From Brachyspira murdochii DSM 12563 (lineage in GTDB: Bacteria; Spirochaetota; Brachyspiria; Brachyspirales; Brachyspiraceae), in contig NC_014150.1 in assembly GCF_000092845.1 (NCBI RefSeq), positions 1,240,001 to 1,304,000 of the forward strand: DNA of 64,000 bases. Direction: 5' to 3'. Position numbers and translations under genes: made by a program. Below are positions 3,490 through 52,138 of this stretch, one piece after another; positions within the stretch are counted from its first letter, which is position 1; each line of letters opens with the position of its first letter. A model generated the notes under the pieces. That model was not told the DNA's origin. It saw nothing but the letters and a program-made list of their open reading frames with translations, and ran no database searches.

Positions 3490-3815
3490 GCTAGGGTGGG
3501 CATGCTTTTTTATGTAGATATAAAATAATAGAAGTATAGATTAAAGAGTTTATATTTACTTGCAAAACATAAAGGGTGGGGAGTGAAAATAAAATTCAAA
3601 AAAATTATTTACATACCCCGCCCTCTAAAATTTTATTGCGTTGCTATAATTTATTAATGCTTATTTTTTATGATATTATAATTGTAAAAGCAAGCCCGCC
3701 CAAGCTTTTATTATTTTTAAGAACGTTGTTTAACGCACGATTAATATTTCATAATTATTAAAGCTTAAAAATAAAAAAGAATATAATTTTATTTTTAAAT
3801 CTATTTAGCGTGCGT
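3490..3815. repeat. Structured intergenic element, copy A
   Basis: Inside the 548-bp gap 3335-3882 there is a set of paired G-rich and C-rich arms. Outer arms: GCTAGGGTGGGC at 3490-3501 with GCCCGCCCAAGC at 3694-3705. Inner arms: AGGGTGGGG at 3573-3581 with CCCCGCCCT at 3616-3624. A third pair, ACGCACG (3733-3739) and CGTGCGT (3809-3815), follows. The arms are nested, and each G-rich arm carries a T opposite a G, which pairs as U.G in RNA. Copy B at 41889-42210 has the same arms at almost the same offsets although the DNA between them differs. No protein is encoded here that I would defend. Confidence 0.7.
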
Positions 3816-5482: not shown

Positions 5483-5497
5483 AATATATAATATATA

Positions 5498-5612
5498 CCC
5501 GGCAACGTTCTACTCTCCCGTAAAGCTACCCTTACAGTACCATCGACGATGAAAGGCTTAACTGCCGTGTTCGGAATGGGAACGGGTGTATCACTTTCTC
5601 TATGGTCACCGA
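5498..5612 (-). rRNA. rrf: 5S ribosomal RNA
   Basis: The minus strand carries the standard 5S landmarks: GGTGACCATAG at the 5' end, ACACCCGTTCCCATTCCGAA, CACGGCAGTTAAG, a GGTACTG segment and GGGAGAGTAG before GTTGCCGGG. The two ends pair to close helix I. It lies about 120 bp after 23S rRNA and before a strong terminator. Ends are accurate to a few bases. Confidence 0.95.
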
Positions 5613-5638
5613 AATAATATTAACAAATTAAAAGAACA

Positions 5639-5688
5639 AAGTTTTAAGTATCTTTGTCAGATATATAAGAGCGTAGATTGTCTCATTC
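5639..5688 (-). other. 3' half of the 23S rRNA processing stalk
   Basis: In the 23S-5S spacer, minus-strand GAATGAGAC (5688-5680) and CTACGCTCTTATATATCTG (5676-5658) are complementary to segments of the 23S leader at 8781-8791 and 8952-8987. With the terminal helix they form a nested stalk around 23S, the usual substrate of RNase III. Confidence 0.75.
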
Positions 5689-5734
5689 TACTCTTTTATT
5701 ATGATTTCCTTATTTAAGAAGAAAACGATAATAT

Positions 5735-8722
<2,988 letters not shown>

Positions 8723-24336: not shown

Positions 24337-24398
24337 GCTTAAAAACTATTAAAGACTACAGAATAAAAGAATTTAATTTTTTTATTAATCTATTCTAC

Positions 24399-24417
24399 CC
24401 GCCCGCCCACCCCCAAA
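24399..24417. repeat. Fragment with CCCGCCC/CCCACCC arms
   Basis: ACCCGCCCGCCCACCCCC contains two of the arm words of the structured element described at 3490 and 41889, back to back and without partners. It is probably a remnant of that element or independent simple sequence. Confidence 0.4.
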
Positions 24418-41860: not shown

Positions 41861-41888
41861 TTAAAAATATATATCATAAATAAAAAAC

Positions 41889-42210
41889 GCTTGGGTGGGA
41901 AGCAAGAATAACAGTGTAAATAAGGAAAGATTGAAAAAATCAAAAAATAACAGACAATATTAGCAAGTTTAAAGGGTGGGGAGTGAGAGTAAATTTCAAA
42001 ATTTTATTTTAATCCCCGCCCTTTTAGATTTTAAAGCTTTATTTTTTAGTATTGACTTTAATTAAATTTATAAACCTATACTTTAAAAGCATGCCCGCCC
42101 TAGCTTTATTTAAATTTGCATTTACTCCACGCACGTAGAATGCATTTTTTTATACAAATAAATTTAGTATTCTCATTTTACCATATATTAAGAATCGATT
42201 AAACGTGCGT
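41889..42210. repeat. Structured intergenic element, copy B
   Basis: Outer arms: GCTTGGGTGGG (41889-41899) with CCCGCCCTAGC (42094-42104). Inner arms: AAGGGTGGGGA (41972-41982) with TCCCCGCCCTT (42013-42023). Third pair: ACGCACG (42131-42137) with CGTGCGT (42204-42210). The span from the first to the fourth arm is 216 bases, as in copy A. A partial second unit follows: CACTTGGGCGGGCA at about 42237-42250 and AAAGGGTGGGAAGTGAGAGT at about 42320-42340. The element fills the gap between the binding-protein and permease genes. Confidence 0.7.
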
Positions 42211-42430
42211 TGAGCGACATTATCAAATTAAAGAGGCACTTGGGCGGGCATTAAAAAATAACAGTAAAAGCTAAAAAATTAAAAAACATTTATAAATAAT
42301 AGATAATATTAAAAAATTTAAAGGGTGGGAAGTGAGAGTAAATTTAAAAATTATTTCAGATAATAATTTATTTGACAAATTTTAGTAATTTAGTTATATT
42401 TTAGAGGAAATTACTAAATATTTTTGGATT

Positions 42431-52027: not shown

Positions 52028-52138
52028 TTTCGGGGACTAGCCCCCGAACCCCCACTTCTTTTGCCGTCCGCTCTGCGTGCCGTAGGCAAGGCACCTACTC
52101 GGTGGTGACCCAAAGAAGCAAAAGGACTGCATTTTTAC
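52028..52138 (+). repeat. R2 head, copy 5 (no tail)
   Basis: The sequence begins with a hairpin GGGGACTAGCCCC, then ACCCCCACTTCTTTTG, a GC-rich stretch with CGGTGGTGACCC, and AAAAGGACTGCATTTTTA. It resembles the heads at 39604 and 51150. The conserved GAAACAAGTCT tail is absent from the next 230 bp. The rest of the 475-bp gap before the second Hsp20 gene is AT-rich. Confidence 0.5.

What the first reader, a model, noticed from the sequence alone, without database searches (positions are those of the whole stretch)
3490..3815. Intergenic element with nested G-rich/C-rich helices at nearly fixed geometry, present twice
Seen directly: copy A (3490-3815) and copy B (41889-42210) share six arms in the same order. 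Offsets from the first base of copies A/B are: inner left arm 83/84, inner right arm 126/125, end of the outer right arm 215/215, ACGCACG 243/242, CGTGCGT 319/315. The DNA between the arms is poorly conserved. In both copies each G-rich arm (GGGTGGG) carries T opposite the G of CCCGCCC, a U.G pair that only makes sense in RNA, or in one-stranded DNA. In the outer arms the mismatch is A.A in copy A and T.T in copy B; each left arm would pair perfectly with the other copy's right arm. Conserved pairing and spacing with free sequence between is what structured RNAs or mobile hairpin elements show. I know of no named family that fits.
Basis: partly seen in the sequence, partly recalled or inferred. 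Interest (0 to 1): 0.75.

Follow-up and report, generated by a model that had tools for sequence, protein, structure and literature searches.

The report
Origin-clustered four-box DNA repeat in Brachyspira
The two odd stretches belong to a family of about 200-bp non-coding DNA modules, found so far only in Brachyspira gut bacteria, that keep four short GC-rich boxes at fixed distances while everything between them changes, and that in two of the three genomes mapped gather around the origin of chromosome replication; they look like binding sites for an unknown protein complex, not like an RNA.

Summary
The window is Brachyspira murdochii 56-150T. Both copies belong to a dispersed repeat family whose unit is a ~200-bp module: CGCACG (a), 68 bp, CGTGCG (b), 30 bp, GGGYGGG, 71 bp, GGGYGGG. 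It occurs singly (abGG), as overlapping inverted pairs (CCabGG) and in tandem arrays. This genome has 48 a-b sites; 24 of 26 Brachyspira species have them (up to 147); the reversed control pattern has none, and no credible copy was found outside the genus.

The RNA/hairpin reading fails: beyond the boxes all stems pair less than shuffled partners, facing G/C boxes almost never have a Watson-Crick centre, the sense strand shows U.G and C.A about equally, and folding energies are ordinary. What is kept is box sequence and spacing (SD about 1 bp) between free spacers, which points to double-stranded DNA read by a spaced protein complex.

Modules are intergenic, enriched 3.7-fold between convergent genes, and 47 of 48 lie in the chromosome half around oriC (42, 16, 0, 1 per Mb with distance) although long gaps are nearly evenly spread. 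I favour chromosome-organising sites; a domesticated mobile repeat is the main rival. The binding protein is unknown.

The parts
3617..3814 (-). copy A, complete four-box module (abGG read on the minus strand; CCab on the plus strand)
   Evidence: 0 mismatches in all four boxes at family spacing; orthologous module kept in G015 and G008
3494..3580 (+). copy A, extra facing pair G-out GGGTGGG and G-in GGGTGGG, with no a-b of its own
   Evidence: decayed at the orthologous locus in G015 and G008
42015..42209 (-). copy B, complete four-box module on the minus strand
   Evidence: 0 mismatches
   Evidence: 0 mismatches
41893..41980 (+). copy B, extra facing pair G-out and G-in
   Evidence: whole array absent from the same gene gap in five relatives
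3734..3739 (+). box a (CGCACG), copy A
3809..3814 (+). box b (CGTGCG), copy A
3617..3623 (-). box G-in (GGGCGGG on minus), copy A
3695..3701 (-). box G-out (GGGCGGG on minus), copy A
42130..42135 (+). box a, copy B
42204..42209 (+). box b, copy B
42242..42248 (+). box G-out of the second module of copy B (GGGCGGG)
42323..42329 (+). box G-in of the second module of copy B (GGGTGGG)

Best explanation
The element is a four-box DNA site: CGCACG, 68 bp, CGTGCG, 30 bp, GGGYGGG, 71 bp, GGGYGGG. It is read as double-stranded DNA by a protein complex that contacts the boxes at fixed spacing along the helix. Dozens of such sites sit in gaps between genes, mostly downstream of genes and around oriC, and mark or fold the origin half of the chromosome. 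In distribution this is like the sites of the nucleoid-occlusion proteins Noc and SlmA; in placement it is like E. coli BIMEs. Shown: boxes, spacing, intergenic and convergent placement, origin-proximal gradient in two genomes, genus restriction, absence of pairing. Inferred: that a protein binds, and that the role is chromosome organisation. Unknown: the protein.
For: Box spacing is kept to SD 0.7-1.5 bp over 331 modules while spacers carry almost no consensus. G/C bases in boxes are kept in orthologues more than G/C bases in spacers (216/252 against 247/352, p = 7e-6). Stems pair less than shuffled partners and RNA folding is ordinary, so the information is in the DNA sites. 1 of 295 arrays overlaps a predicted ORF; odds ratio 3.7 for convergent gaps (p = 2e-11). 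By distance from oriC the density is 42.5, 16.2, 0 and 1.2 a-b sites per Mb although gaps of at least 250 bp are 25, 24, 17, 20 per 100 kb; 47 of 48 in the near half, p = 8e-11. G004 clusters alike (R 0.62). Noc sites are missing from the terminus region (PMC4331003) and SlmA sites are more abundant near the origin (abstract of PMC4117426).
Against: No binding protein is known; every Brachyspira genome has a single ParB-family protein, so there is no Noc-like paralogue. G010 does not show significant clustering (R 0.20, p = 0.29). Two genomes have no a-b site and one has two, so the sites are not essential to the genus. Individual sites are lost or gained quickly. The origin half is also the more plastic half in this genus, which could bias where any repeat survives. 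oriC is inferred, not measured.
Confidence: 0.42

Rival explanations
1. A domesticated or selfish non-autonomous mobile repeat (MITE-like): the boxes are transposase or recombinase binding sites, copies spread by insertion and tandem duplication, and they survive where they harm least (convergent gaps, the plastic origin half).
For: Presence or absence at collinear loci: copy B missing in five relatives, L305 modules missing at L200; tandem expansions; copy number varies from 0 to 147.
Against: No terminal inverted repeats, target duplications or defined ends could be found; no Y1/RAYT transposase in any of 26 genomes; spacers have diverged almost completely while boxes and spacing stayed, which calls for continued selection; a 40-fold gradient with distance from oriC is not explained by the supply of gaps.
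Confidence: 0.33
2. A transcription-linked 3'-end element (BIME-like): bound by gyrase or another factor to relieve supercoiling or insulate neighbouring genes, with the origin bias a by-product of where highly expressed genes lie.
For: Convergent enrichment (odds ratio 3.7); between codirectional genes the abGG strand is sense in 31 of 41 single modules (p = 0.0015); single modules lie with the a side toward a gene 3' end in 60 of 80 cases.
Against: Only 55 of 196 nearby 3' ends have a terminator-like hairpin between gene and module by a simple scan; no known gyrase motif tested; does not by itself explain the near absence from the terminus half.
Confidence: 0.17
3. A structured RNA or single-stranded hairpin element.
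For: The boxes are complementary in inverted arrays; a slight folding excess on the C-rich strand (z -0.95); some orientation bias to transcription.
Against: Stem extensions pair below the shuffled level; Watson-Crick centres nearly absent; no strand preference of T.G relative to genes; single modules abGG and CCab, which hold no partner for their G boxes, are among the commonest forms; the G arms decay alone in orthologues; no Rfam match.
Confidence: 0.06

Closest known systems
REP / BIME elements (repetitive extragenic palindromes and their mosaics)
   Same: Dispersed, intergenic, mosaic arrays in alternating orientation, mostly between convergent or unidirectional genes (PMC3733652; here)
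   Different: REPs are 20-40 bp palindromes ending in GTAG or CGTC, and GTAG REPs are tied to RAYT transposases; here ~200-bp modules of four separate boxes, no palindromic stem, no Y1/RAYT gene in the genus
Noc-binding and SlmA-binding sites
   Same: Tens of sites, depleted in the terminus region and concentrated toward the origin (PMC4331003; PMC4117426)
   Different: Those are single short palindromic sites of a known protein; here four spaced boxes, intergenic only, protein unknown and no Noc-like paralogue
MITEs and modular repeats such as BOX or ERIC (from general knowledge)
   Same: Intergenic dispersed repeats of 100-400 bp, some with variable unit number
   Different: Those have conserved lengths of sequence and terminal or internal hairpins; here only the boxes and their spacing are conserved
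KOPS / matS chromosome motifs (from general knowledge)
   Same: Chromosome-scale bias of G-rich or specific DNA motifs
   Different: No strand polarity relative to replication, and concentration at the origin rather than the terminus

Membership tests
REP/BIME | 20-40 bp GC-rich palindrome ending in GTAG or CGTC | tested here: not met
   Boxes are 6-7 bp and 68 or more bp apart; stem flanks pair below the shuffled level
REP/BIME | intergenic placement, mainly between convergent or unidirectional genes | tested here: met
   1 of 295 arrays in an ORF; 89 convergent, 97 tandem, 39 divergent
REP/BIME | associated RAYT (Y1 transposase) | tested here: not met
   PF01797: 0 of 26 genomes, control genomes ring
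Structured RNA family | conserved pairing with covariation | tested here: not met
   no Rfam family
Noc/SlmA-type chromosome sites | depletion from the terminus, bias to the origin | tested here: met
   Own genome 34, 13, 0, 1 by 400-kb distance class and G004; not significant in G010 (p = 0.29)
Noc/SlmA-type chromosome sites | a dedicated binding protein (for Noc, a ParB paralogue) | tested here: not met
   One ParB_N protein per genome in all 26; SlmA or other binders not searched
Noc/SlmA-type chromosome sites | effect on division or DNA positioning | not testable with these tools
   Needs experiment
MITE | terminal inverted repeats, target-site duplication, related autonomous transposon | tested here: inconclusive
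   Empty sites found, but flanks too diverged to fix exact ends; only the Y1 transposase family was searched
KOPS-like polar motif | strand bias relative to fork direction | tested here: not met
   G strand leading 16, lagging 12 in two genomes

The most novel reading that the evidence does not exclude
Brachyspira chromosomes carry a previously undescribed set of multi-box DNA address sites around oriC, read by an unknown genus-specific protein complex that organises the origin half of the chromosome or times division, in a genus whose oriC lies far from dnaA.
Probability: 0.35. Interest if true: 0.85.

Novelty: new variant of a known kind. Interest (0 to 1): 0.62.

Why it matters
Few bacterial repeat families keep box spacing to about one base pair while the spacers are free, and fewer are tied to the origin half of the chromosome. 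If the modules are bound by a protein complex, they give Brachyspira a candidate for a dispersed chromosome-organising site system that a DNA pull-down can test directly. Even if they are a domesticated mobile repeat, a family with up to 147 a-b sites per genome in 24 of 26 Brachyspira species, not mentioned in the passages I searched of four Brachyspira genome papers, is useful for annotation and typing and for understanding rearrangements (copy B sits at a synteny break).

Tried and rejected
RNA structure: rejected by pairing tests on all stems, the strand test, folding z-scores and Rfam. Terminus cluster: first suspected because dnaA is at position 495; rejected because skew, gene strand, parS-like sites and two papers put oriC near 1.59 Mb. 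KOPS-like polarity: rejected. Noc paralogue: not found. RAYT mobilisation: not found. In-place inversion of a module (868 kb against L293): considered, but loss of opposite halves explains it as well. Heterotypic T/C centres as compensatory change: more likely inheritance of two half-unit types, since homologous units align in one orientation with mostly the same states. Control repeat GCTCTGCGTGCC: 9 copies only, no significant clustering, too few to be a strong control. The whole genome was not available as a file; I worked from stretches. An early merge of loci assumed minus-strand hits were turned round; they are not, and it was redone.

Full report
IDENTITY AND OBSERVATION. The window is positions 1,240,001-1,304,000 of a single 3,241,804-bp contig, the length published for Brachyspira murdochii 56-150T (PMC3035287). 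Both copies are as described. Copy A lies between a MatE gene and a Bax-inhibitor-like gene; copy B lies between a solute-binding-protein gene and an ABC permease gene.

THE FAMILY. The pattern CGCACG-N55..85-CGTGCG occurs 48 times in this genome and in 24 of 26 Brachyspira genomes (28-147 copies in 23 of them, two in G019, none in G001 and G003), with zero hits for the pattern read backwards. Box order over 263 arrays shows the natural unit: CCabGG 54, CCab 44, abGG 42, abGGCCab 12. The module is therefore a-b-GG, which can overlap an inverted one by sharing a-b (CCabGG) or face one (abGGCCab). Tandem arrays have ~350-bp units or, in G010, ~233-bp head-to-tail units.

CONSERVATION. In 331 modules the a-b span is 80 bp (SD 1.0), b to G-out 30-31 bp (SD 0.7), G-out to G-in 77-78 bp (SD 1.5); spacers carry almost no consensus. 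Since modules were picked by their boxes, I tested box conservation on orthologous copies found by flanking genes or by place: G/C bases in boxes are kept in 216 of 252 cases, G/C bases in spacers in 247 of 352 (p = 7e-6) and in flanks in 161 of 212 (p = 0.009). The fourth base of GGGYGGG changes freely (kept in 6 of 13 cases in the C-rich orientation) while the others are mostly kept.

NOT AN RNA STEM. Beyond the 6-bp core the a-b arms pair less often than shuffled partners (6.63 against 7.17 of 12, SD 0.15). The Gin-Cin and Gout-Cout flanks behave alike. The central pair of facing Gin-Cin boxes is T.G 32, C.A 27, T-A 5, C-G 0. In the sense strand of codirectional genes T.G and C.A are about equal (25 and 20). 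The likely cause is that facing half-units are of two inherited types. At the copy-A locus the G-rich arms have decayed in G015 and G008 while the other four boxes remain. Folding z-scores are ordinary. No Rfam family fits.

PLACEMENT. One of 295 arrays overlaps a predicted ORF. Convergent gaps hold 89 of 225 arrays against 55 of 370 long gaps without a module (odds ratio 3.7, p = 2e-11). Between codirectional genes the abGG strand is sense in 31 of 41 single modules (p = 0.0015). ORFs were called by a simple script, so single gene assignments are approximate.

CHROMOSOME POSITION. dnaA is at position 495, but published work states that oriC is not linked to dnaA in Brachyspira and that leading strands are G-rich (PMC3163572, PMC3532143). 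My third-position skew by coding strand flips near 1.59 Mb, and the only two parS-like sites in the stretches read lie at 1,592,522 and 1,593,169. Around that point the a-b sites fall 34, 13, 0, 1 by 400-kb distance class, while gaps of at least 250 bp are 25, 24, 17, 20 per 100 kb; 47 of 48 in the near half has p = 8e-11. G004 shows the same (R 0.62, mean 1.635 Mb). G010 does not reach significance (R 0.20, p = 0.29), though its mean (1.87 Mb) is near its skew origin, roughly 1.8 Mb. No replication-strand bias was seen. The maps rest on exact-pattern hits, so decayed modules are not counted.

GAIN AND LOSS. Copy B is absent from the same solute-binding-protein/permease gap in five relatives, which instead carry a short gap, in most of them with a terminator-like hairpin and a promoter-like sequence. 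In the two closest relatives the upstream DNA itself differs, a synteny break. L305 modules are missing at collinear L200 sites. Exact ends could not be defined.

MECHANISM. Fixed spacing with free spacers and no pairing is what a multi-contact protein complex on double-stranded DNA would leave. Placement resembles BIMEs; distribution resembles Noc and SlmA sites. Two known agents were tested and are missing: Y1/RAYT transposases and a Noc-like ParB paralogue. I therefore propose chromosome-organising sites read by an unidentified protein (0.42), with a domesticated mobile repeat as the main rival (0.33), a 3'-end transcription or supercoiling element next (0.17), and a structured RNA last (0.06).

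Noticed in passing
window 24398-24412: A cluster CCCGCCCGCCCACCC, the strongest GC run in an AT-rich intergenic stretch, is conserved with its flanks in G004 (L214, 95% and 91%), and similar runs occur in G014 and G002 beside the Bax-inhibitor-like gene. It is not a module; possible G-quadruplex or terminator-linked motif.
   Followed up: no
window 52070-52081 and 8 other sites in the genome: A second dispersed repeat, GCTCTGCGTGCC (9 copies in the genome), seen also in relatives beside sequences such as GGGGCTTTGCCCCCGCTCTGCGTGCC.
   Followed up: partly
G000:C1:1592522 and 1593169: Two parS-like sites (TTTCACGTGAAA) 650 bp apart at the skew-predicted oriC, while dnaA is at position 495 and the single ParB-family gene at 0.68 Mb: an unusual separation of dnaA, parB and oriC.
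   Followed up: partly
window 41861-42430: The gap that holds copy B is a synteny break: the closest relatives G008 and G015, with 98-100% identical permease, have unrelated DNA upstream.
   Followed up: partly
G000:C1:1406573-1406897 and 1751799-1752227: Two nearly identical module arrays about 345 kb apart, in opposite orientation, suggest a recent copy or segmental duplication.
   Followed up: no
G010:C1:2494111-2495553: A head-to-tail tandem array of modules with ~233-bp period in G010, unlike the ~350-bp arrays of the own genome.
   Followed up: no
window 5497-8722: 5S and 23S rRNA genes on the minus strand; no 16S rRNA hit in the window, in line with the split rRNA genes known in Brachyspira (PMC2650404).
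   Followed up: no
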